Assembly (NCBI GenBank): GCA_028715015.1
Contig: JAQTLF010000004.1
Location: 1-42,874, forward strand
Length of the DNA: 42,874 nucleotides
Direction: 5' to 3'
Origin: Candidatus Moraniibacteriota bacterium
GTDB lineage: Bacteria > Patescibacteriota > Minisyncoccia > Moranbacterales > GWC2-37-73
Shown here: positions 15,828 through 28,577 of the stretch, one piece after another
Numbering within the stretch: position 1 is the stretch's first letter
Layout: each line of letters begins with the position of its first letter
The notes under the pieces: model-generated
Seen by the model: the letters and a program-made list of their open reading frames with translations, nothing else
Databases searched by the model: none
Told to the model about the DNA's origin: nothing
Made by a program: the position numbers and the translations under genes

Positions 15828-17357
15828 TCATTGTAAACATATTACACCCAATGTTCCAGTGACGCCAACAAAAAAATCAGAATTTGGAGAGATTGATTCA
15901 TTACCACAAAGATCTTTGGCGATATTTACCTCATTATTTGATGCAGCAGAAAAATCAAATCCGCCCACCTCATTTATGAGATTGAGCCTTGACCACTCAG
16001 CTCCAAATGCTGATATATTCATATCGCCCTGCAATGTTTTTATTTGTGTTCCATATCCCCACCTAGTGCCAACAAATGCAATAGTTTTAATTTTTGTAAA
16101 ATTTGGCAACATTTGGAGACGAACTATTATCCTATTTGCCATTTGAATATCTTTCATATTTATTCGCAATTGATCAATATAAACATGATTATTAATACCA
16201 ATAAAACTGAATATTAGTATCGTAGAAATAATAAAAAATATTTTTTTTACACTCTCATCAAAGAGTGTGTAACCCACCACGAGAATGCCAGCCCAAAAAA
16301 CTCCCAGGGAGGCTATAATTCTTGGCACCGGCCACCAAACTGCCAATAAAAGAGATACCCCCCAAACGCCAAGGATGGAAACTGCAAGCAGAATTAAAAC
16401 AGCCATTATAACTTTAAAAGAATTTATAGTATTTTTTCTTCTTAAATAATATAAACGAATCAAGCCAACACAAACAAAAAATAGCAATACAAGTAATAGA
16501 ATTTTTGACCCTAATGGCAATATAGGCTCATTCTGAAAAAACACAGTTTCAACAGAGATTTTAAATTGATACAATCGATTTGAAATATTATGCAAATTTA
16601 TAAAATTACCACGGTCTGCAATTGATATATGCAAAAAAGACAACAACAGTTTATTCATCAAAAAATACACTGATGTACCAGATATAAGCGTAAGAAGTTG
16701 CGGTCCCAGATTGATTCTCCTGATTACATCAAACCAAAAATTATTATCATACTTATACGAATCAGATTTATAGCTGCGCAATGTTTCAATTACAAGCGAC
16801 GTAATAATTGCAACAAAAACGTAATTGATAACCAATTGATACATGCTAATTGCAAAAACAAAAAGAATTGTTGCTAATGAAAATTCCTTCAATTTAAATT
16901 TACTCAAATAAACCGAAGTAAACCCAAAAAAGAGAGAGAAGATGAAAAATGTAAGTGTCATTTTAAATGTAAATATTTCAGCCTGATAAGGGAATAAAGT
17001 GATAAATAAAACAACAAGTGAACTGAGTGTAATGTTATTATTAATCTTCCATATCCTACAAATTATTATGCCTAACAATACGAATCCGATTGCTGCAATA
17101 AACATCAGCAAGGTGGGAGAAAAAACACCTTGAATACCAAGGTAATTAAAAAATTCAAAAAATAACCCTGATCCCCAGCGGCCCTGATATAACACCGTGC
17201 CAATATTTGGAGTAAAAAGCGTAAAAATATAGTCATCAACAGCATACCCCAACGTGAAAAAAGTGATTCCTCTGGCCAAAATAAAGCCAAGGATACTAAT
17301 AATGAAAACTATGCGCTCCTCTTTTGTTAATTTTAATTTCATTATAATGTTATCCAT
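15828..17357 (-). CDS. GtrII/GtrC-type membrane glucosyltransferase
   Basis: About 509 residues from MDNIIMKLK; the ORF extends to 17447 with a less likely start. Ten or more TM helices. The first periplasmic loop has GYAVDDYIF and then YQGRWGSG, the acidic pair plus GRW that mark GtrII-like transferases (GT-C fold). It would move the lipid-linked sugar to the surface glycan outside. It is the specificity component of the gtr set and often the most variable. Confidence 0.78.
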   Translation of the reverse strand: MDNIIMKLKLTKEERIVFIISILGFILARGITFFTLGYAVDDYIFTLFTPNIGTVLYQGRWGSGLFFEFFNYLGIQGVFSPTLLMFIAAIGFVLLGIIICRIWKINNNITLSSLVVLFITLFPYQAEIFTFKMTLTFFIFSLFFGFTSVYLSKFKLKEFSLATILFVFAISMYQLVINYVFVAIITSLVIETLRSYKSDSYKYDNNFWFDVIRRINLGPQLLTLISGTSVYFLMNKLLLSFLHISIADRGNFINLHNISNRLYQFKISVETVFFQNEPILPLGSKILLLVLLFFVCVGLIRLYYLRRKNTINSFKVIMAVLILLAVSILGVWGVSLLLAVWWPVPRIIASLGVFWAGILVVGYTLFDESVKKIFFIISTILIFSFIGINNHVYIDQLRINMKDIQMANRIIVRLQMLPNFTKIKTIAFVGTRWGYGTQIKTLQGDMNISAFGAEWSRLNLINEVGGFDFSAASNNEVNIAKDLCGNESISPNSDFFVGVTGTLGVICLQ

Positions 17358-17504: not shown

Positions 17505-20500
17505 TCAGAAAAATTGATTAATTTCTTTGCGATAACTTTCTTGAAAATTTTTCAAATTATGTTGAAAAATGATCCGCTCTCTTATTAATGCTATCTTGTC
17601 GAAATAATATGAGGGATTATTATAAAATTTATCAATTTTTTCACAATATTCATCGACTGTTTCAACATTTTTAACAAGTAAACCATAATCTCTTCCAAAA
17701 ATTTCCTCCGTATCTCCAATTGCTGATGAAATTATTGGCAAATTGTGTCCAATCATATCCAAAATAACTAATGCAATGCCTTCAAATTTTGAAGTGAAAA
17801 GCAATAAATCAAATTCCTCCATATTCAATTCAGAATAATCATTATAGACACCGCGATATTCAACATTTTTCAATTTTAATATTTTTTCAAAGTATTCATC
17901 AGCCACTTTATCCCCAAAACATGCACCATAAACAACAAATGTAATGTTTTTTCTCTCTTTACATATGCCATAAAAAACATCCATCAATTTTTGATTACAT
18001 ATTCTTGAAGCCCATAATATTTTTTTATTTACGGAAAATTTCTTTTTAATGTTCAGCGCCTGATCTATTGGTGAAAATAATTTTATATAAGGGAAATCTA
18101 CTCCAGCCAATTCTTTAAAATAAGTATACCAGTATGCATTATCACTTAAAACTAAGTCTGAATTACGCATAATCTCAGGGTATAAAACTGGATAACCATC
18201 ATATTTGCCAGTATCCCAATTATATACTGGGCAAAAAAGCGAGGAAACTATTCTAACCCCATATTCCGTAAATATATCTTTATAGTATTTAATCAATTGC
18301 AAGGCGATATCGGAATTTATTACATGAATAACTTTAATTTTTGAATTCATTATCGCCTTCATTAATATATGCATTTGTTCATCAGCGCTAAAATTAGACC
18401 AACACGGACATTCCGATGCAATATCGAAATGCGGAATAGAAATTTGATCTATTCTTTCTCCCGACTTTATAGTTGTTATTAAACATGGATTATAGCTGGT
18501 TTCATGCAAAGAATTTGAATATTCAACTACCAATTTATCGGCACCACCCAAAACAACCCATGGCGCAAAGAATATAAAATCCCTATTTTCTAAAAATTTT
18601 AACAATTTAATATAAATTTTAACTTGATCAGAGATTTCAAGCCCTAAATAACGAGGATTATGAAATCTTCTATCAAATATGGAAATATTTTTTTCGCCAT
18701 ATCCTTTTAAGAATTTTTTGTAAACACCAATATTATTTTCATGATAATTTTCAATAATATTGTCATTACCAATAGCAAACTTTTTATTTGCCAACATAGG
18801 TTTTTTATAAAAAAAACCATTGTCCACTAGACGCTTTTTAACAAGATTACCATTTAACACACTGTGTGAATCTTTTTGTTTTCTATAATAAAAAACAAAT
18901 TTTGAACCAACATAAGGCAGACCCATATTTAATAAAAAATTGTTCAAATCCCAATCTTCATGTCCATAAATATGGTCGTTTTTTCTATTTTCATATTTAA
19001 GTAACATGCCCCTGAAACACATTATTTTGCTAGTATAACAATGTGTAAATAAATTATTAATTTTTATATTATCATTTGAGTTGTTATAAACATGAAAACT
19101 TATTCTAGGAAATTCCACAAGAAGCTCAGGAAATGCCACCAAGTGCTCATTTTCTGGCAATTTTTCCAGATCATCTTGCTTTTTTACGACATTCCCATAG
19201 TGATTAAATGTTGTGTCAAACAAAGCAGCAAAACAATTCGAGGAGGATAGATCGTCACCATCAGCAAATAAAATAAAATTATTTTTAGCTATATTAACTC
19301 CAAAATTTCTTGAATCTGCTGGGTTTCCAAAATCAACAACCTCAATTTTATTGAAAATGTCTATACTATTTTTAACTATTTGTTCAGTTTTACTATCTGG
19401 TTTATCCAAAACAGCAATGAACTCGATATTTTTCCATAGCTGAAATTTATCATGATATTTTTTCATATCACGAATATTTTGTATTGTTTTTTTCGCAATC
19501 AAACCCTCCGCATGGAATGTTACAACCAAAGACAATGTATATATATCCCTATCTACGAGCCCATTTGAAAGATTTATATAATGTTTAGTCTCTTTATATT
19601 CATTAATTAAGTTATTAAATATTTTTTTTAGATATTTTTTTGCAAATGAAATGGGGTGAAAAACTACAAATTTTATTTTATAATTAATATCCCTTAACTT
19701 CCAAAATTTAGATGTTAACATAAATGAGATTTCATTTTTTAATCTTTCACATTTATATTGAAGCTGCATATTTAATTCCAATAATTCATCTTTTTCAATT
19801 TTTAATGTTTCAATTGTTTTTTTAAGATTACTTTGACTTTCTAAATTTTCTGCAATCAAACTATCAGCCGCTGATTCCCTATTAATATCTAATGCTTTAT
19901 TGATATCAATTTTTTTATGCATTATATCTGTGATCTTACAAAAATAATCCGCATTTTCTGCCGAATAATATTTTTTAATGTGCTTGTTTATAACGTCTTT
20001 ATCATCATTAGATATTTTATATCTCCACGGTAATGAAAGAGCTAAAAAAACATTTTGAATATTGGCTCTCAGTGATGGTGTTATTTTAAATGCAACAATA
20101 TTTGGCAGTCCATAATTCTCAAGATATTTTTTAGGAAATATTTTATCACATGACAAAACACTCATCAACAATCCTGTTGCATAAGCATTTTCAACATAGT
20201 GCACATTATTTTGATCTACACTTTCCTTGATAACTATTGCGCCTTTTTCAATCGGCAAATTTTGCAAATTAGTATCATGCAAAATACAAATAGCGCCATC
20301 CTTGAGATAAGGAAGTACCATAAGAAAATCAAGCAACTCGCCAGGCACAACATGCATTGTATCAATGACGCAAAAATCTATCCCTGGTCCAATAATATCT
20401 AAAAATTTAGCTGCAACACCTCCAGTATAAACAGCTATTTTGTCACGCAAATCTGGCTGCGTTTTTTCCAAAATCCAACCTGTTTTTTGTTCAGGATCAC

Positions 20501-20720
20501 GATAATAGGCGTCATTGTAGTCAATTCCAAAGAGCTTTACATCTGGATCCATTCTTGTATCCTCCAACATAAAAGCAGAGCAACTCCCCGCAGCAATACC
20601 AATTTCCAAAATTTTCTTAGGACTATGTGTTTTGATTAGTTCACTAATAAAATCAATTTCGGATTCCTGCATTTCTGAATAATTTAACAACAACCGTCTT
20701 TTATCTTCAATCTTTCCCAT
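17505..20720 (-). CDS. Three-domain fusion: class I methyltransferase, GT2, GT4
   Basis: 1071 residues. About 1-220: a Rossmann methyltransferase or CmcI-like domain (ILEIGIAAGSCSAF, FCVIDTMH, ILHDTNLQN). About 280-345: coiled coil. About 390-640: GT2 (LSLVVTFHAEGLI, ILFADGDDLSSSN). About 700-1071: GT4 (GGADKLVVEYSNS, ILWASRICNQK, TSKFEGIALVILDM). No TM helices, so cytosolic. Three activities in one chain suggest ordered building and capping of one oligosaccharide. Its place next to wzt suggests glycan synthesis tied to export. Confidence 0.8.
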   Translation of the reverse strand: MGKIEDKRRLLLNYSEMQESEIDFISELIKTHSPKKILEIGIAAGSCSAFMLEDTRMDPDVKLFGIDYNDAYYRDPEQKTGWILEKTQPDLRDKIAVYTGGVAAKFLDIIGPGIDFCVIDTMHVVPGELLDFLMVLPYLKDGAICILHDTNLQNLPIEKGAIVIKESVDQNNVHYVENAYATGLLMSVLSCDKIFPKKYLENYGLPNIVAFKITPSLRANIQNVFLALSLPWRYKISNDDKDVINKHIKKYYSAENADYFCKITDIMHKKIDINKALDINRESAADSLIAENLESQSNLKKTIETLKIEKDELLELNMQLQYKCERLKNEISFMLTSKFWKLRDINYKIKFVVFHPISFAKKYLKKIFNNLINEYKETKHYINLSNGLVDRDIYTLSLVVTFHAEGLIAKKTIQNIRDMKKYHDKFQLWKNIEFIAVLDKPDSKTEQIVKNSIDIFNKIEVVDFGNPADSRNFGVNIAKNNFILFADGDDLSSSNCFAALFDTTFNHYGNVVKKQDDLEKLPENEHLVAFPELLVEFPRISFHVYNNSNDNIKINNLFTHCYTSKIMCFRGMLLKYENRKNDHIYGHEDWDLNNFLLNMGLPYVGSKFVFYYRKQKDSHSVLNGNLVKKRLVDNGFFYKKPMLANKKFAIGNDNIIENYHENNIGVYKKFLKGYGEKNISIFDRRFHNPRYLGLEISDQVKIYIKLLKFLENRDFIFFAPWVVLGGADKLVVEYSNSLHETSYNPCLITTIKSGERIDQISIPHFDIASECPCWSNFSADEQMHILMKAIMNSKIKVIHVINSDIALQLIKYYKDIFTEYGVRIVSSLFCPVYNWDTGKYDGYPVLYPEIMRNSDLVLSDNAYWYTYFKELAGVDFPYIKLFSPIDQALNIKKKFSVNKKILWASRICNQKLMDVFYGICKERKNITFVVYGACFGDKVADEYFEKILKLKNVEYRGVYNDYSELNMEEFDLLLFTSKFEGIALVILDMIGHNLPIISSAIGDTEEIFGRDYGLLVKNVETVDEYCEKIDKFYNNPSYYFDKIALIRERIIFQHNLKNFQESYRKEINQFF

Positions 20721-20760
20721 AATGATATACTAATTATAAAAATCAATAAGATACTCGTTA

Positions 20761-22002
20761 TTAATTCCACTCATAATCAACCTCTATAAATCCATGGCTT
20801 TTCTTTTTGGAAACAAACTTAAACTCACTTGATTTTTCAAGTAAATCATAATTTTTAAAAGCATTATCTCCATGAACTGCTGCTTTAATATAATACGTGT
20901 TATTTTTAAGAGGCAAATTGAAAAAATTTATTTGAAAATATCCTAATTTTATATATTTTTCTTTATCAACATCGTCTATAAAAGTATTGATTCCAAATAT
21001 ATACAGACCGTCTTGACTATGAACAGCTAATCCAAAATTAAGATCGTTTTTTGCTTTTTTAATATCAAAATAAACCCTGATTGACATATCGTCTCCAGTC
21101 TCAAAAACATTTTTTTCTTTGCCATCTTTATCCAAAAATTCAACCTTTGTTATTTCTGCAATTTTGTGTGATTCAGTTTTGTTTTCTTCATTTGAAATGG
21201 CAACATTTTTTTCTTTTCCATCTTTCTTTTGCTTTTCTTCGTCAAAAATCCTTTTTTCCTCGTCTGACATGTTTTGATACATGTATTCAGTTCCAACATC
21301 TTCAGCCTTTCCAATTTTTATTATTTTTCCGTTTCTAAGAAGCAATGCTCGATCACAATATCGTTGCACTGTGGCAATATCATGAGTGACCAAAATCACT
21401 GTTTTTCCAGCATCTCTGTATTTGCTGAATTCTGAAAGACATTTTGATTGAAAATTGCTGTCTCCCACAGCCAAAACCTCATCCATCAACAAAATCTCAC
21501 GGTTGGCATGAATTGAAACAGAAAAAGCCAACCGCACTTGCATGCCGGAAGAATAATTTTTCAGTTTTTGATCAATGAATCGCTCCAGTTCAGAAAATTG
21601 CACGATTGAATCAAATTTTTTGTCGATTTCTTTCTTGGAAAGTCCCAAAACAGTGGCATTGAGATACACATTGTCACGACCGGAGAGTTCAGGATTGAAA
21701 CCGATTCCAAGCTCCAAAAATGGCGAAATGCGTCCGTCAATTTTCACGCTTCCCTTGTCGGTCTGATATATGCCAGCCAGGATTTTAAGCAATGTGCTTT
21801 TTCCGCTTCCATTTCGGCCAATGATGCCGAAAAATTCACCTTTTTTCACTTCAAAAGAAACATCGTCAAGGGCTTTAAATTCTTCGTAGGAGTTTTTTTT
21901 GAAAGCCGAAACAGCCGCCCCTCGCAGTGAGGAGATTTTCTCATGAGGAATTTTGAATGTCTTACTGACATTTTTGACGCTTATTGCGATATCTTTGTTC
22001 AT
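20761..22002 (-). CDS. wzt: ABC transporter ATPase for polysaccharide export (Wzt)
   Basis: 413 residues. Walker A GRNGSGKST (62-70), signature YSSGMQ (150-155), Walker B ILLMDE (170-175) and a switch His in VTHD. The C-terminal 130 residues form a Wzt-type beta domain that may recognise the glycan end. It should pair with the permease encoded at 36555-37331, but 14.5 kb lie between them. The start codon is touched by the arm of a 4HB cassette, leaving no SD. Confidence 0.93.
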   Translation of the reverse strand: MNKDIAISVKNVSKTFKIPHEKISSLRGAAVSAFKKNSYEEFKALDDVSFEVKKGEFFGIIGRNGSGKSTLLKILAGIYQTDKGSVKIDGRISPFLELGIGFNPELSGRDNVYLNATVLGLSKKEIDKKFDSIVQFSELERFIDQKLKNYSSGMQVRLAFSVSIHANREILLMDEVLAVGDSNFQSKCLSEFSKYRDAGKTVILVTHDIATVQRYCDRALLLRNGKIIKIGKAEDVGTEYMYQNMSDEEKRIFDEEKQKKDGKEKNVAISNEENKTESHKIAEITKVEFLDKDGKEKNVFETGDDMSIRVYFDIKKAKNDLNFGLAVHSQDGLYIFGINTFIDDVDKEKYIKLGYFQINFFNLPLKNNTYYIKAAVHGDNAFKNYDLLEKSSEFKFVSKKKSHGFIEVDYEWN

Positions 22003-22453
22003 AATTTCTAATTTTGAATTTCGAATTTCGAACCAAATTTTAATGTTTCAACTACTTAATTTTGAAATAATCTTTCCAAAAATAAGTGTTAGTTCCTGAG
22101 CTTCTTTCCATAACATGCCTGTTTCTGAAGCTAACTCTGGAGACGCCACTGAAATCATATGCAGCCAGTGCTTACTTTCTTGTATCTCTTTTTTGCAAAT
22201 ATGTATCTTGTTCTTGAAATCTTTCTTTGAGCTGGCACCGTTAGCTTCAGCATAATTGGCTCCCACACTGGTTGAACTCCTGACTATTTGTGAAATAAGC
22301 GGTCTTGTTATTGTATCCTGTTTTATTTTTTTGCACATCAATATGCAGCTTTCACCAAAAGCTGACGTTCTGATTTCTAAATTATACTCTCTTTTGTTAT
22401 TATTTTCAATCATTAGTTTTTCGAAATTGATTCAAAATTCAAAATTGGAAATT
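22003..22453 (-). mobile_element. 4HB cassette 1 (inverted arms around a four-helix-bundle gene)
   Basis: Arm L (22003-22032) and arm R (22418-22453) are imperfect inverted copies: AATTTCtAATTTTGAATTT against AATTTCcAATTTTGAATTT once reversed. Arm L touches the wzt start codon. Arm R stands 4 bp before the 4HB start codon. Both genes point the same way. Whether the unit is mobile is inference; see findings. Confidence 0.6.
22048..22413 (-). CDS. Four-helix-bundle protein (S23/IVP family), copy 1
   Basis: 121 residues, the usual length. The core motif reads IVRSSTSVGANYAEANGASSKKDFKNK, a good match to the family pattern R-S-x2-S-x2-N-x2-E. Four amphipathic helices, no TM. Members are encoded by intervening sequences in 23S rRNA and by many free-standing genes. 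Their biochemical role is unsettled, with basic surfaces suggesting nucleic-acid binding. It is most like copy 2 at 23251. Confidence 0.88.
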   Translation of the reverse strand: MIENNNKREYNLEIRTSAFGESCILMCKKIKQDTITRPLISQIVRSSTSVGANYAEANGASSKKDFKNKIHICKKEIQESKHWLHMISVASPELASETGMLWKEAQELTLIFGKIISKLSS

Positions 22454-22470
22454 CGAAATTTATGCAATGT

Positions 22471-22567
22471 GCTTCATATGGTGCAGGATGGGGATATGGT
22501 GATTTTCTCTTATTTTAAGCCATAATTTATCAATATTGACAGAAAACATGTGATGTGGTAGTATTAC
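22471..22567 (+). repeat. 98-bp promoter-bearing repeat, copy A
   Basis: From CTTCATATGGTGCAG to GGTAGTATTA this matches 25369-25466 with few differences. It carries a complete promoter and lies directly before a short structured RNA. Confidence 0.75.
22536..22564 (+). promoter_or_regulatory. Promoter of small RNA A
   Basis: TTGACA, 17 nt, TAGTAT. The same elements and spacing occur at 25435-25463. Confidence 0.75.
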
Positions 22568-22570
22568 TTC

Positions 22571-22627
22571 ATAGAAATCTCGGCCAGGAGGTAACACTCC
22601 ACATCGTTAGGCGGGGATTTTTATTTT
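22571..22627 (+). ncRNA. Putative small RNA A
   Basis: The RNA starts about 7 nt after the -10 and ends in a T-rich stretch next to the 3' end of the convergent PBECR-like gene. It can fold with AAATCTC pairing GGGATTT, an inner GGAG/CTCC hairpin, and a conserved TTAGGCGGG segment shared with RNA B. There is no ORF of note. Function is unknown. Confidence 0.5.
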
Positions 22628-22637
22628 GTTCAAAATA

Positions 22638-23045
22638 CTACTTTGGTGAAAAACAAGACATCATATATTTTCTTTTTCTTTTATCCTCTTTTATTTGGAC
22701 ATAAAACAAATTCTTCTCCTTGGTTAGTCCCGCAAATCTATACAATATTTCTTTTCTTTCAAAAGACTCCACTTTCTCAACTGGCCCAACCTTGGAATCT
22801 TTTATTAACTCTAGTGATGCATTAAAAAATCGCAATCTGTTCATTCTCTCTTTCTGGGATTTCTGAAACAAATGTTCACGAAAATAGTCTAAAAATATTT
22901 TTTCTTTTTTAAAATAAGCTGACCTAATATATGGCCGTCTTTTTGTTTTCTTCTTGATTTCATCATAAACCAAAAAAGCTTTCTTCATGACCTCGCCGTA
23001 GCTCGTTCCTGAGATTTTATTTGATTTTGTTTGATATGGAATCAT
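22638..23045 (-). CDS. PBECR-like nuclease (toxin-like) protein
   Basis: 135 residues. The N-terminus has a short polar segment then a basic helical domain. The C-terminal 40 residues (FAGLTKEKNLFYVQIKED to YMMSCFSPK) resemble the barnase-EndoU-ColicinE5/D-RelE-like (PBECR) nuclease core. If right, it is an RNA-cutting toxin or domain. No antitoxin gene is adjacent. It has its own extended -10 and a hairpin in the leader. The family call is moderate; an alternative is an uncharacterised CPR family. Confidence 0.5.
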   Translation of the reverse strand: MIPYQTKSNKISGTSYGEVMKKAFLVYDEIKKKTKRRPYIRSAYFKKEKIFLDYFREHLFQKSQKERMNRLRFFNASLELIKDSKVGPVEKVESFERKEILYRFAGLTKEKNLFYVQIKEDKRKRKYMMSCFSPK

Positions 23046-23056
23046 TACTATAAAAC

Positions 23057-23094
23057 AAACCCCGCCATGCCCAAAGGGTCAGGACGGGTGGTTT
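23057..23094. promoter_or_regulatory. Hairpin in the leader of the PBECR-like gene
   Basis: AAACC/GGTTT close an imperfect GC-rich stem that includes CCC-AAA-GGG. On the minus strand it is followed by GTTTGTTTT, so it could act as an attenuator between the promoter and the ATG at 23045. It is GC-rich in an AT-rich setting and may be a repeat. Confidence 0.45.
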
Positions 23095-23105
23095 TAGATG
23101 ATTGA

Positions 23106-23114
23106 ATTATAGCA
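23106..23114 (-). promoter_or_regulatory. Extended -10 promoter of the PBECR-like gene
   Basis: TGCTATAAT on the minus strand, about 60 nt before the start codon. It stands where the coding similarity of the broken wzt fragment stops. Confidence 0.6.
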
Positions 23115-23138
23115 AAACAAGGAGATGATGTCAAAATG

Positions 23139-23209
23139 CCGCTCATCTTTTCGTGAGGAATGCGGAAAGTTTTGGAAACGTGGGAGACTTTTATGGCAAC
23201 ATCAGACAT
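23139..23209 (-). pseudogene. Broken 5' fragment of a second wzt
   Basis: Translation from ATG at 23209 gives MSDVAIKVSHVSKTFRIPHE and then KMSG, matching the first residues of the intact Wzt (IAISVKNVSKTFKIPHEKIS). Similarity ends after about 24 codons and the Walker motifs are absent. A 4HB cassette lies 5 bp upstream, as at the intact wzt. It appears to be a remnant of an earlier wzt copy lost by rearrangement. Confidence 0.8.
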
Positions 23210-23214
23210 AGCTT

Positions 23215-23681
23215 AGTTTAAAGTTTTAAATTTGAAATTTGAAATCAGTTTTAATTCTCTAAGTTTTTAATTTCCTTATTCCTGCCCTCCATTGTAACAA
23301 TTATCTTGGAAAAAATCAAAGTTAGCTCGTGCGCTTCCTGCCAAAATTTACGACATTCTTCAATATTTTCAACACTTGCTTTGCCCAAAAGCTGCAACCA
23401 GTACTTTGTTTCTTTCGCCTCTTTCTTGCAAATGTATATTTTATTCTTAAAATCTTTCTTGGAACTCGCCCCATTTGCTTCGCAATAGTTTGCGCCAATG
23501 CTTGTAGCTGAGCGTACAAGTTGATTCAAAAGTGGAATTGTCACAATATCTTTGTTTATTTTTCTTATAAATTCAATAATTTCACCGCTGAATTTCGCGG
23601 TTCTGTCTTCGAGTTTGAATTTTTCTTGTGATTTCTCCATTTAAAATTTAGGATTTGATTTTAAATTTAAAACTTTAAACT
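23215..23681 (-). mobile_element. 4HB cassette 2
   Basis: Arm L (23215-23246) and arm R (23651-23681) match as inverted copies. AGTTTAAAGTTTTAAATTT is identical in both, followed by similar AAAT words. Arm L is 5 bp from the start of the broken wzt and arm R is 10 bp from the 4HB start. The arm sequence has no likeness to cassettes 3 or 4. Confidence 0.62.
23251..23640 (-). CDS. Four-helix-bundle protein (S23/IVP family), copy 2
   Basis: 129 residues. Core motif LVRSATSIGANYCEANGASS with KKDFKNKIYICKKE, close to copy 1. The C-terminal tail is charged. Fragments of this gene's start region and arm R occur again at about 25287-25361 and 26305-26383, so this cassette has left copies elsewhere in the island. 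Confidence 0.88.
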   Translation of the reverse strand: MEKSQEKFKLEDRTAKFSGEIIEFIRKINKDIVTIPLLNQLVRSATSIGANYCEANGASSKKDFKNKIYICKKEAKETKYWLQLLGKASVENIEECRKFWQEAHELTLIFSKIIVTMEGRNKEIKNLEN

Positions 23682-23781
23682 TAAAAATATTTTTGCTTGT
23701 ATCTTGATGTTTGTATCTTACACGATTTTAAGGACTTGTGACTTTGTGGACTTTTTTGTGATTTATCAATTTTTGTATTTT

Positions 23782-24840
23782 TTAAGCAAGAAAGTAATTA
23801 TTGATTGCGAATTTGAATTGTTCAACGAAAAGTTCCTTGAAAAATAATGCGCTGTTTTGCTCATAGAATAACAGAATCGCTTTTTTGTAATCACTCTCAT
23901 TGACACTTCTATATGACAACGGACAAAAGCCATACGCCATCAAGATGGCATTACCCAAAATACGGGCGGTTCGTTTATTTCCATCCTCAAAAGGCTGTAT
24001 ATATGAAATCATCAAAATTGCCATAAGTGCTTTTTCCAGAGGATGCTGGATTTTCCCAATTGCAGATATTGTTTTTTCCAATACTTCTTTTATTTGATAT
24101 TGATTGTCTAATGGTCGATATATTGTTCCAGTAATTCCGACCAAACCTTTGCGCAAGCCTGTTGCCACGTTCAAATCACCGACAATAAGAGCATGCAAAT
24201 CCTCAATTTTCCTCACAGTCAAATCACTGAACACCTCTTTATTATTCAGGACATAATCAAGCGCTTTTTTATGATTCAAAATCATAACCGCCTCTTCTTT
24301 TTCATGCCCCTCTGCTTCCTTGTTTTCACGTATAAGTATTTCCGTATCTATAAGCGAATACGTATTTCCTTCAATCTGTGAAGATTTCCAACTAAGTTCG
24401 ATAGTCAGTCGCTCCAATTCTTTTTTGAAAATCGTTTCCGACATCGAAGCCACTCGCTTTTCGTAAAAATTGTTGATTTCCTGCAATTCGGAAAGCTCAT
24501 CATCATTAAACAAACCGGCCATATTGTCGAATATTTCAAAATTGAAATTAGGATATGTCACCACTCGTTCATCAAGAGTTTTCTTGAAATATTCCTCCAC
24601 ATTGAAATATGATAAAAGTTTGTTCTCAACAGCCTCAAAATATAACACGCTTCTTCCCATTCCTTCTTTTTTGATCAACTTGTTTTCCAACAAAAAATCC
24701 ATATCTCGAATAATCGTAACACGTGAAAAAACCTCACCGAGATCCCTCTCTGTGTATGCCTTAATCTCTCGAGTTCCCACACCTTTTTGTCCCCTTATGA
24801 AGCCAAAAATTGTTGATTGTCTTTTTGTTAAATTAATCAT
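23782..24840 (-). CDS. wHTH-Fic protein with Gln in place of the catalytic His
   Basis: 352 residues from Met at 24840; the ORF begins at 24861, but a TATAAA touches that ATG. In ORF numbering, a winged helix spans 10-75. The inhibitory motif S160-x3-E164-G165 is present (class II Fic). The Fic core reads YIQPFEDGNKRTAR: Gln289 replaces the AMPylation His, while the anion loop (DGN, Arg297, Arg300) is kept. Fic enzymes transfer AMP to target hydroxyls. This one may be inactive or belong to a Q-type subfamily. It is probably autoregulated through the adjacent operator. Confidence 0.85.
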   Translation of the reverse strand: MINLTKRQSTIFGFIRGQKGVGTREIKAYTERDLGEVFSRVTIIRDMDFLLENKLIKKEGMGRSVLYFEAVENKLLSYFNVEEYFKKTLDERVVTYPNFNFEIFDNMAGLFNDDELSELQEINNFYEKRVASMSETIFKKELERLTIELSWKSSQIEGNTYSLIDTEILIRENKEAEGHEKEEAVMILNHKKALDYVLNNKEVFSDLTVRKIEDLHALIVGDLNVATGLRKGLVGITGTIYRPLDNQYQIKEVLEKTISAIGKIQHPLEKALMAILMISYIQPFEDGNKRTARILGNAILMAYGFCPLSYRSVNESDYKKAILLFYEQNSALFFKELFVEQFKFAINNYFLA

Positions 24841-24852
24841 GCGTGTATATAT

Positions 24853-24896
24853 TTGTATCATTTTATACGATTAATTGTATCATTTTGATACAATTA
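24853..24896. promoter_or_regulatory. Operator of the Fic gene: palindrome plus third half-site
   Basis: TAATTGTATCA-TTT-TGATACAATTA (24872-24896) is a perfect inverted repeat. A third TTGTATCA at 24853-24860 stands 22 bp from the first, two helical turns. The -10-like TATAAA lies between them. This suits repression by the protein's own winged helix. Confidence 0.7.
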
Positions 24897-24900
24897 ATGC

Positions 24901-25212
24901 AACACCTTGCGTCAATTTATAACTTTTTAGACATTGTATGTATTAAAAGATATATCTAATTACGCATCACAACACATAGACGTATTATATACGATTAATA
25001 GACGATTGCAAAGCCACGGAAAGCCCTGCTACCCATGGTTAAGCGGAAATGCAAAAAACACAGTTCCACATTTCTTTTGACCGCAAAAGAAACCTGGAGG
25101 AAAGAAAACTCGCACCGGATGAAGATACTGTGGCAAAAACTGCGTTCTTCGCTAAAATTTACACTTCGCGCCTACGTCTGCTGACGGGCGCTACGTTTCA
25201 AAATTTTTTAAC
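24901..25212. other. Intergenic stretch without a gene
   Basis: No credible ORF. One short perfect hairpin, TTTCTTTT-gaccgc-AAAAGAAA, is at about 25072-25093. The base composition turns less AT-rich from 25010 on, as in decayed coding or imported DNA. Confidence 0.5.
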
Positions 25213-25385
25213 GCTCATCACTTGTTTTTTGCCTACGTACTTCATATGGTGCATTTGGAATGCGGAATGCGAATACTGGATTGATTTTTGCGATTTCTCC
25301 ATTTTAAATTTAGGATTTGATTTTAAACTTAAAACTTTAAACTTAAAAATATTTCTGCTTGCTTACGTACTTCATATGGTGCAGA
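25213..25385. repeat. 173-bp repeat with a remnant of 4HB cassette 2, copy 1
   Basis: It begins GCTCATCACTTGTTTTT and has TACGTACTTCATATGGTGCA at both ends of its core. Inside is a stretch matching the 5' end and arm R of the 4HB gene at 23640 (start codon, GATTTCTCCAT, TTAAACTTAAAAATATTT). A near-identical copy is at 26236-26406. Confidence 0.8.
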
Positions 25386-25466
25386 ATGGGAATATAGTTA
25401 TTTTCCATTATTTTAAGCCATAATTTATCAAATATTGACAGAAAACATGTGGTGTGGTAGTATTAG
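25369..25466 (+). repeat. 98-bp promoter-bearing repeat, copy B
   Basis: Same element as 22471-22567, overlapping the end of the preceding repeat at CTTCATATGGTGCA. Confidence 0.75.
25435..25463 (+). promoter_or_regulatory. Promoter of small RNA B
   Basis: TTGACA (25435-25440), 17-nt spacer, TAGTAT (25458-25463). The spacer differs from copy A at one base. Confidence 0.78.
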
Positions 25467-25469
25467 TTT

Positions 25470-25526
25470 ACAATGGCATCTCGCAAGAGAAGCTCCGAGG
25501 ACTCGCTTAGGCGGGTCCGTTTTTTT
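25470..25526 (+). ncRNA. Putative small RNA B with intrinsic terminator
   Basis: A transcript of about 57 nt. An inner hairpin CTC-gcaa-GAG is followed by a terminator GGACTCGC-ttag-GCGGGTCC and a T run. The TTAGGCGGG segment recurs in RNA A. It ends at the stop codon of the convergent PemK-like gene. No ORF. Confidence 0.6.
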
Positions 25527-25929
25527 ATTTTCCTTGTAAAAATTTCACAACCACGCCAAGTATCTTATTAAATTCATCTTTTCCAACAAAACCCAATCTT
25601 CGCAAAAACCTCTTGGTGCTCATAACCCTCAATTGGAAAATAATTGCCGAAAAAAGCTTTCCCTCGTGACTATATTGATAATAATATGGATGATTTTTAA
25701 GTTTTGAACTAAGCGGTATTACTAGTGCTAAGTGTCTGTTTATTTTTCTTAACACTAAAATTGGTCTTTCAAAGTTTTCATTCTTACCGTCTTGTTCATA
25801 GCCTATATTGACACCAAGAGAACACCACCAGATTTCACCTTTTCTAAAATAAATATCCTTGTTAGTTTTATGTAACTCTTGTTTCTTCTTGTTCCAAACT
25901 TCAAATTCTTTTTTGTTTTCTGTTTTCAT
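25525..25929 (-). CDS. PemK/MazF-family endoribonuclease toxin-like protein
   Basis: 134 residues. After a charged N-terminal extension (about 1-27) the MazF fold begins with RKGEIWWCSLGVNIGYEQ, and the core RPILVLRKINRHLALVIPLSS follows. The family cuts mRNA. No antitoxin ORF is adjacent, so this is an orphan, or it is controlled otherwise, perhaps by the convergent small RNA. The start has only a weak SD-like GAG. Confidence 0.83.
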   Translation of the reverse strand: MKTENKKEFEVWNKKKQELHKTNKDIYFRKGEIWWCSLGVNIGYEQDGKNENFERPILVLRKINRHLALVIPLSSKLKNHPYYYQYSHEGKLFSAIIFQLRVMSTKRFLRRLGFVGKDEFNKILGVVVKFLQGK

Positions 25930-25958
25930 CTCGTGAAATTAACATATTTTACCAAATA

Positions 25959-25967
25959 ATTATACCA
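25959..25967 (-). promoter_or_regulatory. Extended -10 promoter of the PemK-like gene
   Basis: TGGTATAAT on the minus strand, 30 nt before the start codon. Confidence 0.62.
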
Positions 25968-26069
25968 TCAAAAGGCCAAGTATGCAATGTTTTGGCGCGT
26001 GCAAAACTCTTTTCCACATTTCCCTCAAAAGTTTTCTTCCATACCATTCTCTTCTTTGATAAGGAGAGA

Positions 26070-26213
26070 TGTCCCGATACGGAATCGGGACAGAGAGGTT
26101 GAGCAGGGCCTAGCTCAGCCCCACCTCAATCCTCCCCCTATCTAAGGGGAGGAAGAAATAAGGAAAAATTCTTATTGATCCTCACCCCAACCCTCTCCTT
26201 ATCTAAGGAGAGG
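26070..26213. repeat. Cluster of GC-rich palindromes
   Basis: Three clear hairpins: GTCCCGAT-acgga-ATCGGGAC (26071-26091), CCTCCCC to GGGGAGG (26131-26152), and CCTCTCCTTA-tc-TAAGGAGAGG (26192-26213). The last two belong to a tandem unit of about 60 bp ending in GGAATAAGGAAA or a similar word. No ORF covers them. They look like a REP-type element in a gap of 620 bp. Confidence 0.65.
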
Positions 26214-26235
26214 AGGAATAAGGAAATAATTATTG

Positions 26236-26406
26236 GCTCATCACTTGTTTTTAGCCTACGTACTTCATATGGTGCAGGATGGGTGCGGAATGCGAATACT
26301 GGATTGATTTTTGCGATTTCTCCATTTTAAATTTAGGATTTGATTTTAAATTTAAAACTTTAAACTTAAAAATATTTCTGCTTGCTTACGTACTTCATAT
26401 GGTGCA
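26236..26406. repeat. 171-bp repeat with a remnant of 4HB cassette 2, copy 2
   Basis: Nearly the same as 25213-25385, including the TACGTACTTCATATGGTGCA ends and the 4HB start-region fragment. It is followed by unique AT-rich DNA up to the promoter at 26509. Confidence 0.8.
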
Positions 26407-26508
26407 TTTGGAATGCGGAATGCATATACTGGACTTTTTTGTGATTTGTTTGATGTTTGTGTCTTGATGTTTGTATCTTTCCCGCTGTTTGTTTAAAAAA
26501 TGCAAAAA

Positions 26509-26517
26509 TGCTAGAAT
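26509..26517 (+). promoter_or_regulatory. Extended -10 promoter of the SpoIID-like gene
   Basis: TGCTAGAAT lies 33 nt before ATG 26551. No SD follows. Confidence 0.5.
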
Positions 26518-26550
26518 ATATATGTTGGTTTGCGTTAAAATGAACAAAAA

Positions 26551-28113
26551 ATGAAAATAAAAAAAATCAAACGAATATTCATATTTATATTTTTTTTCAC
26601 GTCATTAACCATTGCCTCCAAATCAGCCGAGGCATATTGTGTTTATGATGGAGGAAATTTTCATCTTCAAAGCGATCCGAATCAGATTCTTATGCCAATT
26701 CACCGCCTTTACAACACAAATAATGGTGCGTATCTTTATACGAAAAGTGTTGCCGATGCCAATTACGTTTTGGGAAAATGGCCTGAATTTGAATTTACTG
26801 ATGGAATACCGGCTTTTTGTGCATATTCCATATACAAAGATGGACTTACGCCAATATACAGGCTATACAACACAAAAAATGGCGCTTATTTATACACCCG
26901 AGGTGAAGCTGATAGGGATTATGTTTTAAATAAATATAAGGATTTTGAATTTACTGATGGTGTTGCATCGTTTTATGCATCACTGACAATGCAAGATGGA
27001 TTGACACCAATTTACAGACTATTCAACACGAAGAATGGAATGTTTCTCTATACAAGAGGTGCAACTGACAGGGATTATGTCATGAGTAAATGGCCTGAAT
27101 TTGAATTTACTGATGGAATTCCAGCATTCTATGCAGACACCACAAATGACTCTGGCCCTGCATTGTTTAAATATGAAGGTCCTGAAATTTCAGTCGGACT
27201 TTGGTACTATGGAAAAACTGACATCCAAAATTCGAATTTCAAAATAAGTGCCAATAAGACATACAACATCAGAGATGCTGCGGGCAATATTTTGGCGCAA
27301 GCGGGAGGAAGTTCAACCACGAGTGTTGGATATGATGACAACCAAAACCAATTGACTGTCGAAGGACCATTGAGCAAAGTTATTGCCGGCAAAACCGTCA
27401 CTTTTGATGCAGCCGATGGTGACAACTCCACTCTCATTTTCGACACCCATCGTTCAAGTTTTGTTTCCGATTGGCGTGGAAAAATCGACAACTACAGAGG
27501 GAAAATAAAAATCCAATATTATCGCGGATATGACATTGCAAACGGGGCGGCACCTGGTAGCGCAGATGTGACCCAGATTTGGGTCAACAACATTCTGCCA
27601 TTGGAACAATATGTTTGGGGATCGGCAGAAACAAACGGAACAAAAGCCCTCAACCACACACAAGTGATGACCACGGCCGTCAGGACCTATGGTTTTTGGT
27701 ATATCAAATATGCCAACAAATATTCAGCACTTGGTTTCAAAATCCGCTCAGACAGCGGTTCGCAAAATTATGGAGGATACGATTGGGAAAAAAATCATCC
27801 AAACATAAAAACAGCAGCTCAAAACACGCGCGGGGTCATTGCAACTTATGCAGGCGACGTGGCACTCACGCCCTACTCTTCAGCCAGCGACGGCAGGACA
27901 AGAAGTTGGCAGGAAAAATGGGGTTCCACAGATTATCCTTGGTGCCAATCAGTCCCCGACCCATATGGCAAAGATCTCTCCAGATCATCAGGCAGCCACA
28001 TGGTCGGACTCATCGGATTCGGCTCAGAAAATTTGGCCAGCACCTACGGCTGGGACTGGCAAAGAATTTTGCATTATTATTATACTAATATTTCACTTCC
28101 GGTGAATTATTAA
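26551..28113 (+). CDS. Secreted SpoIID-like peptidoglycan lytic transglycosylase with three DUF5648 repeats
   Basis: 520 residues. Signal peptide about 1-28. DUF5648 repeats occupy about 49-204 (IYRLYNTKNGAYLYT, EFEFTDG). The SpoIID/LytB domain covers about 225-515. It has ILPLEQYVWGSAE, where the Glu of SAE fits the catalytic acid, then QVMTTAVRTY and the end motif GSHMVGLIGFGSENLA. SpoIID enzymes cut denuded glycan strands of the wall. The repeats probably bind the wall. It resembles wall remodelling proteins outside spore formers and does not imply sporulation. Confidence 0.87.
   Translation: MKIKKIKRIFIFIFFFTSLTIASKSAEAYCVYDGGNFHLQSDPNQILMPIHRLYNTNNGAYLYTKSVADANYVLGKWPEFEFTDGIPAFCAYSIYKDGLTPIYRLYNTKNGAYLYTRGEADRDYVLNKYKDFEFTDGVASFYASLTMQDGLTPIYRLFNTKNGMFLYTRGATDRDYVMSKWPEFEFTDGIPAFYADTTNDSGPALFKYEGPEISVGLWYYGKTDIQNSNFKISANKTYNIRDAAGNILAQAGGSSTTSVGYDDNQNQLTVEGPLSKVIAGKTVTFDAADGDNSTLIFDTHRSSFVSDWRGKIDNYRGKIKIQYYRGYDIANGAAPGSADVTQIWVNNILPLEQYVWGSAETNGTKALNHTQVMTTAVRTYGFWYIKYANKYSALGFKIRSDSGSQNYGGYDWEKNHPNIKTAAQNTRGVIATYAGDVALTPYSSASDGRTRSWQEKWGSTDYPWCQSVPDPYGKDLSRSSGSHMVGLIGFGSENLASTYGWDWQRILHYYYTNISLPVNY
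26695..27150 (+). repeat. Three DUF5648 coding repeats, 156-bp period
   Basis: Units start near 26695, 26851 and 27007 and are closely related to those at 9864-10316. Here they are at the N-terminus, there at the C-terminus. Confidence 0.85.
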
Positions 28114-28123
28114 TTCATAAATT

Positions 28124-28577
28124 AAAGAGTTAACGGGTTAACGAGTTATGAAAATACAAAAATTTGAAGAATTAAATATTTGGAAATTAAGTCTTGAGAT
28201 TACGAAAGAAATTTATGACTTGACTTCGAAAGGTAATTTTTCAAAAGATTTTGGACTAAGAGACCAAATCAGAAGAGCTGTTGTTTCAATCAGTTCAAAT
28301 ATAGTCGAGGGATTTGAAAAAAATAACAATAATGAATTTGTCAGATTTCTTAAAATATCCAAAGGATCAGCTGGTGAAGTTAGGAATCAATTATACATCG
28401 CATTAGCCATTCCATATATTTCACAAAAAGAATTTGATGAACTAAATGGTAAATTGGAAAATTTGGCATGCCAAGTTGGAGCTTTTATTGTTTATTTGCA
28501 AAAGAAAAAAATAAACAAGGAATTTTTAAGGAAATAATGCATTCAATTTTTAACTCGTTAACTCGTTAACACGTTAA
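28124..28577 (+). mobile_element. 4HB cassette 3
   Basis: Arm L (28124-28147) has GAGTTAACGGGTTAACGAGTT. Arm R (28548-28577) reads as its inverted copy, with about 20 of 22 bases matching. Arm L touches the 4HB ATG. Arm R ends 16 bp before the ATG of the next gene. The GTTAACG word is unlike the other cassettes' arms. Confidence 0.65.
28148..28537 (+). CDS. Four-helix-bundle protein (S23/IVP family), copy 3
   Basis: 129 residues. N-terminal FEELNIWKLSLEITKEIY and core QIRRAVVSISSNIVEGFEK are classic for the family. The C-terminus is basic (KKKINKEFLRK). It diverges from copies 1 and 2 and fits the general TIGR02436 pattern best. It is transcribed towards the anchored Cys-rich gene at 28594. 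Confidence 0.9.
   Translation: MKIQKFEELNIWKLSLEITKEIYDLTSKGNFSKDFGLRDQIRRAVVSISSNIVEGFEKNNNNEFVRFLKISKGSAGEVRNQLYIALAIPYISQKEFDELNGKLENLACQVGAFIVYLQKKKINKEFLRK

What the first reader, a model, noticed from the sequence alone, without database searches (positions are those of the whole stretch)
23782..24896. Fic protein with Gln at the catalytic His and an operator for its own winged helix
The Fic core reads IQPFEDGNKRTAR rather than HPFxDGN, while the inhibitory S-x3-E-G and the phosphate-binding residues are intact. Three TTGTATCA half-sites overlap the start region. The protein may work as a nucleotide-sensing repressor instead of an AMPylator.
Basis: partly seen in the sequence, partly recalled or inferred. 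Interest (0 to 1): 0.5.

Follow-up and report, generated by a model that had tools for sequence, protein, structure and literature searches.

The report
His-less Fic protein repressing its promoter
This gene encodes a Fic-fold protein whose usual catalytic histidine is always glutamine across a whole bacterial family, fused to a DNA-binding domain that almost certainly shuts off its own promoter; the glutamine clade was seen in 2015 without a function, and its own-promoter control now gives a way to test what it does.

Summary
ORF 24840-23782(-), 352 aa, is an N-terminal winged helix plus a Fic domain with IQPFEDGNKRTAR and an intact inhibitory S-x3-E-G. The Gln is not an error: every examined family member keeps it (about 90 sequences from Patescibacteria, Bacteroidota and Proteobacteria), while the other Fic proteins read from related genomes keep His. 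The H-to-Q clade is already published (clade D2, Khater & Mohanty 2015, motif Qx[FY]x[DE][GV]NKR), without a function and described as usually single-domain.

What looks new is the regulation. In 47 of 73 relatives a palindromic operator fills the 16-18 bp spacer of a sigma-70-like promoter, and in 46 of those the -10 box is part of the right half-site (shuffles: 1.4). Half-site bases co-vary with recognition-helix residues 40 and 41, and one relative (L042) is a natural swap of promoter, operator and winged helix onto a 91%-identical Fic core. Perfect palindromes occur only in front of these genes. So auto-repression is strongly supported.

'Nucleotide sensor' stays untested. Because no second target was found, the Fic-Q domain probably has an activity of its own that auto-repression keeps low. 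The closest characterised relative, CccR, keeps His.

The parts
23782..24840 (-). wHTH-Fic(Gln) protein gene, 352 aa, start ATG 24840 (upstream in-frame ATG 24861 is inside an operator half-site)
24631..24840 (-). N-terminal winged-helix DNA-binding domain, residues 1-70
   Evidence: AlphaFold2 model: H6-16, H23-34, H40-52, E56-59, E66-69; weak Pfam HTH_DeoR/MarR_2/HTH_11 matches in relatives; profile match to the C-terminal wHTH of CbFic2 8cil
24685..24723 (-). recognition helix, residues 40-52 (RVTIIRDMDFLLE); residues 40 and 41 co-vary with operator bases
24367..24384 (-). class II inhibitory helix motif SSQIEG (S153..E157-G158); SSxIEGNTY is invariant or nearly so in orthologs
23962..24000 (-). 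Fic motif IQPFEDGNKRTAR, Q282 in place of catalytic His, K289 in place of the second Gly
24870..24898 (.). operator palindrome ATTAATTGTATCAAAATGATACAATTAAT (core 24875-24893 perfect)
24850..24861 (-). third operator half-site ATGATACAAATA, between the -10 box and the start codon
24897..24902 (-). -35 box TTGCAT
   Evidence: TTGACT in many relatives
24874..24879 (-). -10 box TACAAT, shared with the right operator half-site (17 bp spacer filled by the palindrome)

Best explanation
The gene is a self-repressing, non-canonical Fic protein. Its N-terminal winged helix binds head-to-head half-sites (ATGATACAATTA here) that fill the space between the -35 and -10 boxes of its own promoter, with a third half-site near the transcription start; binding blocks RNA polymerase and holds the protein at a low level. 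The Fic domain keeps the nucleotide/phosphate-binding residues and the auto-inhibitory glutamate but has a fixed Gln instead of the catalytic His and Lys instead of the second motif Gly, so it is not a conventional His-dependent AMPylator. Shown by sequence: family-wide Gln, operator and promoter architecture, co-variation of operator and recognition helix. Inferred: repression (rather than activation), dimer binding, loss of AMPylation. My split for what the Fic-Q pocket does: altered chemistry or target binding as an effector kept low by auto-repression 0.45; ligand (nucleotide) sensor that relieves repression 0.35; other, such as a partner or antidote of neighbouring active Fic toxins, 0.2.
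For: Gln in every member checked: 44/44, 32/32 held-out genes above 150 bits, 9 plus 3 plasmid members, 4 viral-contig members. One branch separates Q from H Fic proteins, support 98/90. Half-sites 4.5 per promoter versus 0.55 in control windows; held-out set 2.5 versus 0.41. Promoter with operator in the spacer in 47/73 versus 1.4 shuffled, -10 fused to the half-site in 46/47. Residue 40 Arg with base A, non-Arg with G: 37/41 and 22/26, Fisher 6e-10, 58/5000 when permuted within 60%-identity clades; Met41 with TTA core, 14/5000. L042 chimera: Fic core 91% to L030, winged helix 77% to L026, operator of the L026 type. Exact palindrome only in front of these genes in 21 genomes, reversed-pattern control 0. 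AlphaFold2 model: wHTH plus Fic fold, pLDDT 84. Working precedent: CccR binds two inverted repeats near its -35 and -10 boxes and represses itself (PMC9755527).
Against: No binding or expression data exist for this family. A whole-helix versus operator partial Mantel test was not significant (604/2000 permutations), and within 70%-identity clades the residue tests have no power. One held-out prediction failed: Ala41 was predicted to read ATA but went with AGA. Residual His-independent activity cannot be excluded; the 2015 paper argues these proteins may not be dead. The inhibitory-motif loop (154-160) is the least confident part of the model (pLDDT below 50).
Confidence: 0.75

Rival explanations
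1. Nucleotide-sensing repressor: ATP/ADP/AMP or another phosphate ligand in the Fic-Q pocket switches the winged helix on or off the operator.
For: Nucleotide-pocket residues D286, N288, K289, R290, R293, E157 and R230 are invariant in 43 orthologs although the protein is only about 41-61% identical overall; fixed Gln without drift implies a selected role; operators are real.
Against: No second target operator in the genome and no conserved downstream gene, so a sensor would report only to itself. Part of the Proteobacterial branch has changed the motif Gly to Val. The Moraxella member keeps the pocket without a wHTH.
Confidence: 0.33
2. Conventional AMPylator toxin/effector that merely tolerates Gln and is self-repressed like CccR.
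For: Same layout as CccR (Fic + HTH + autorepression, PMC9755527); H-to-A in IbpA left residual activity according to PMC4454073.
Against: His is one base change away yet never seen in about 90 members; CccR H192A abolishes activity; the motif also differs at GNK and, in some Proteobacteria, DVNK.
Confidence: 0.12
3. Partner or antidote of active Fic toxins encoded nearby.
For: 4 of 20 neighbourhoods carry a canonical HPFxDGNGR Fic gene within about 3 kb; about 46 canonical Fic genes in about 19 Mb give roughly 0.3-0.6 expected.
Against: The four neighbours belong to four different Fic families and 16 of 20 loci have none; clustering in variable islands explains it as well.
Confidence: 0.08
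4. Sequence error or decaying pseudogene in this one genome.
For: None found.
Against: Open frame, Gln in all relatives, purifying selection on the pocket.
Confidence: 0.01

Closest known systems
Fic/Doc clade D2 (Khater & Mohanty 2015, PMC4454073)
   Same: Motif Qx[FY]x[DE][GV]NKR, exactly matched including the Gly/Val alternative; bacterial; function unknown.
   Different: Described as usually single-domain and without any regulatory context; here nearly all members have an N-terminal winged helix and own-promoter operators.
CccR of Yersinia pseudotuberculosis (PMC9755527, PDB 7xux)
   Same: Class II Fic protein with a helix-turn-helix that represses its own promoter through inverted repeats near -35 and -10; half-site ATGATAATCT resembles ATGATACAAT.
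   Different: CccR has the HTH at the C-terminus, keeps His (HPFGNGNGR) and AMPylates FtsZ; its repeats are 26 bp apart instead of adjoining; E-value to our protein only 5e-5.
CbFic2 of Coxiella burnetii (PMC10628234, PDB 8cil)
   Same: Class II Fic protein with a DeoR-type winged helix; our profile matches that winged helix.
   Different: C-terminal HTH, HPFDDGNGRIGR, active AMPylase/deAMPylase, DNA binding apparently not sequence-specific.
FICD/HYPE (PDB 6i7g, 4u04)
   Same: Best sequence and fold match of the Fic core (E 5e-14, TM 0.55); N-terminal inhibitory Glu.
   Different: Catalytic His present; no DNA-binding domain.

Membership tests
Fic fold (Pfam PF02661) | Match above curated cut-off | tested here: met
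   46.1 bits versus 24
Canonical Fic AMPylator | HxFx(D/E)GNGRxxR with catalytic His | tested here: not met
   QPFEDGNKRTAR; Gln in all orthologs
Canonical Fic AMPylator | AMP transfer to a protein hydroxyl | not testable with these tools
   needs biochemistry
Clade D2 of Fic/Doc (PMC4454073) | Motif Qx[FY]x[DE][GV]NKR | tested here: met
   IQPFEDGNKR here; Gly or Val at the variable site in relatives
Clade D2 of Fic/Doc (PMC4454073) | Groups within their Doc branch in the 1883-sequence tree | not tested
Class II Fic | (S/T)xxxE(G/N) N-terminal to the Fic motif | tested here: met
   S153..E157-G158, invariant
CccR-type self-repressing Fic-HTH | HTH fused to Fic | tested here: met
   wHTH present but at the N-terminus
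CccR-type self-repressing Fic-HTH | Inverted repeats over own promoter | tested here: met
CccR-type self-repressing Fic-HTH | Catalytic His and AMPylation | tested here: not met
   His absent
Doc kinase | HxFxDANKR motif | tested here: not met
   Gln instead of His, Gly instead of Ala

The most novel reading that the evidence does not exclude
A widespread, horizontally moving family in which the Fic pocket has been re-tooled (Gln+Lys instead of His+Gly) for a His-independent reaction or ligand switch, with protein level set by an operator built into its own promoter whose specificity changes by swapping promoter and winged helix as one module.
Probability: 0.4. Interest if true: 0.75.

Novelty: new variant of a known kind. 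Interest (0 to 1): 0.55.

Why it matters
A clade of Fic proteins without the catalytic His has been known since 2015 with no lead on function. Linking it to a winged helix, a promoter-embedded operator and a testable operator code gives a direct assay (own-promoter reporter) for ligand, partner or mutation effects on the Fic-Q pocket, and a natural domain swap that shows specificity is modular. It also extends self-repression of Fic proteins from single cases (CccR) to a family found in several phyla and mobile elements.

Tried and rejected
Sequencing error or pseudogene: rejected, Gln in all relatives. Regulator of a conserved neighbour: rejected, downstream genes are unrelated (PfkB, prfB, NUDIX, IS110, TrmB, VIT1 and others). 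Regulon in the genome: the exact palindrome occurs once in the own genome and only at copies of this gene in 21 genomes; two extra sites (G116:C18, G127:C42) are contig-end copies of the same promoter. A cluster of loose half-sites at 16781-16858 lies inside a coding region and is taken as chance. Whole-helix partial Mantel test: not significant, replaced by residue-level tests, which were chosen after looking at the data. Prediction Ala41 -> ATA failed in the held-out set (AGA instead); Met41 had no held-out case. Paper searches for His-less Fic pseudoenzymes or Fic in Patescibacteria found nothing further. Rfam: nothing in 20000-28000. The generic promoter scan missed the conserved promoter of this gene because its -35 box TTGCAT is weak; it was found by comparison.

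Full report
The gene. The minus-strand ORF ending at 23782 encodes 352 aa from ATG 24840. The longer start at 24861 falls inside an operator half-site, and relatives align from 24840. Pfam finds only Fic (46 bits, cut-off 24). The AlphaFold2 model (9-sequence alignment, mean pLDDT 84, pTM 0.76) shows a winged helix at residues 1-70 followed by the Fic fold; best fold matches are FICD structures, then BT_2513, SoFic, CccR and CbFic2. The genome (1.06 Mb, 61 contigs) has a second Fic gene with ordinary HPFLDGNGR. The nearest named relatives are Patescibacteria (Komeilibacteria, Paceibacterota).

Is the Gln real? A search of 187 related genomes gave about 40 orthologs at 43-61% identity. In 44 of 44 aligned proteins the position is Gln, with S153, S154, E157, G158, N159, T160, Y161, D286, G287, N288, K289, R290 and R293 also invariant. 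A phylum-wide search found a match in 36 of 380 genomes; 32 newly fetched ones scoring over 150 bits all have Gln and the two low-scoring ones are ordinary HPFxDGNGR proteins. Plasmid members from Bacteroides, Rhodobacterales, Rhizobiales and Burkholderiales also have Gln, some with DVNKR. Four viral-contig members do too. Of 20 further Fic proteins fetched from related Patescibacteria genomes, 19 gave a readable frame and all 19 have His and GNGR, with any clear HTH C-terminal; one frame (L115) was broken. In a 76-row tree the Q proteins are one side of one branch (98/90; 0 of 500 label shuffles as low). His and Gln codons differ by one base, so this constancy means selection for Gln, not drift.

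Prior knowledge. Khater & Mohanty 2015 (PMC4454073) describe clade D2 with motif Qx[F|Y]x[D|E][G|V]NKR, 45 sequences, usually single-domain, unknown function. The match is exact, so the Gln substitution itself is not new. The passage on D2 does not mention a winged helix or operators.

Operator. The window holds a 29-bp palindrome (24870-24898) plus a third half-site (24850-24861). Across orthologs the half-site is ATG-NNN-C[A/G]ATTA: 198 sites in 44 promoters against 25 in shuffles, 4.5 per promoter against 0.55 in other stretches of the same loci. In genes not used to define it the mean is 2.5 against 0.41. In 47 of 73 promoters the palindrome occupies the 16-18 bp spacer between TTGNNN and TAYAAT-like boxes, and in 46 the -10 box is part of the right half-site; shuffled promoters give 1.4. 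Similar half-sites precede Proteobacterial members, for example ATGAAACGATTA in Sulfitobacter and ATGACAAGATTA in Comamonas. A Moraxella member without a winged helix has no such repeats.

Operator and winged helix go together. Arg40 goes with base A and Lys/Leu40 with G at operator position 8 (37/41, 22/26; Fisher 6e-10). Met41 goes with core TTA. Both survive permutation within 60%-identity clades (58/5000 and 14/5000) but not within 70% clades, where there is no power. A cruder whole-helix test was not significant, and one of my written-down predictions (Ala41 to ATA) failed. L042 is a natural chimera: Fic core 91% identical to L030 but winged helix 31%; winged helix 77% identical to L026 but Fic core 51%; breakpoint near residue 72; its operator is of the L026 type. 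Because operator and winged helix are adjacent, the swap alone would not prove pairing, but it agrees with the co-variation.

Targets and context. The exact palindrome occurs once in this genome and only before copies of this gene in 21 genomes. Downstream genes are unrelated. Presence is patchy, and the same-genus copy (G002) is only 53% identical in a different neighbourhood, which points to horizontal movement. Four of 20 neighbourhoods carry a canonical Fic gene within about 3 kb, more than the 0.3-0.6 expected, but these belong to four families.

Mechanism. Auto-repression by promoter occlusion is the best reading, with CccR as experimental precedent (PMC9755527). Conventional AMPylation is unlikely because CccR H192A is inactive. 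A repressor with one target, itself, has no output of its own, so the conserved Fic-Q pocket must either sense something that changes its own level or act as an effector that must be kept scarce. I favour the effector reading slightly (0.45 to 0.35). Neither nucleotide binding nor catalysis was tested.

Noticed in passing
window 23623-23699, 25285-25361, 26308-26384: A 77-bp AT-rich direct repeat (94-95% identical) flanks the gene; shorter relatives occur at about 25 places in the genome, so the gene sits in a repeat-rich island.
   Followed up: partly
window 25525-25929 (-): PemK/MazF-like toxin gene next to the Fic gene; no antitoxin gene was looked for.
   Followed up: no
window 23251-23640 (-): 23S rRNA-intervening-sequence-type four-helix bundle protein; ORFs at 22048-22413 and 28148-28537 look like further copies.
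   Followed up: partly
L065, L073, L075, L082: Canonical HPFxDGNGR Fic genes lie within about 3 kb of the Gln-Fic gene in 4 of 20 neighbourhoods, above expectation.
   Followed up: partly
L042 (G069:C38): Natural chimera: promoter, operator and winged helix from one lineage joined to a Fic core 91% identical to another.
   Followed up: yes
L174 1138-2181: Moraxella bovis plasmid member keeps YLQYFSDHNKRTAR but has no N-terminal winged helix and no operator repeats.
   Followed up: partly
L011 and L015: Orthologs with an in-frame TAG inside the match; possible recent decay or assembly error.
   Followed up: no
L095 1501-1512 (G000:C44:3234-3245): A lone exact half-site ATGATACAATTA between divergent ORFs, one of them a polyprenyl synthase-like ORF; about what chance would give.
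   Followed up: no
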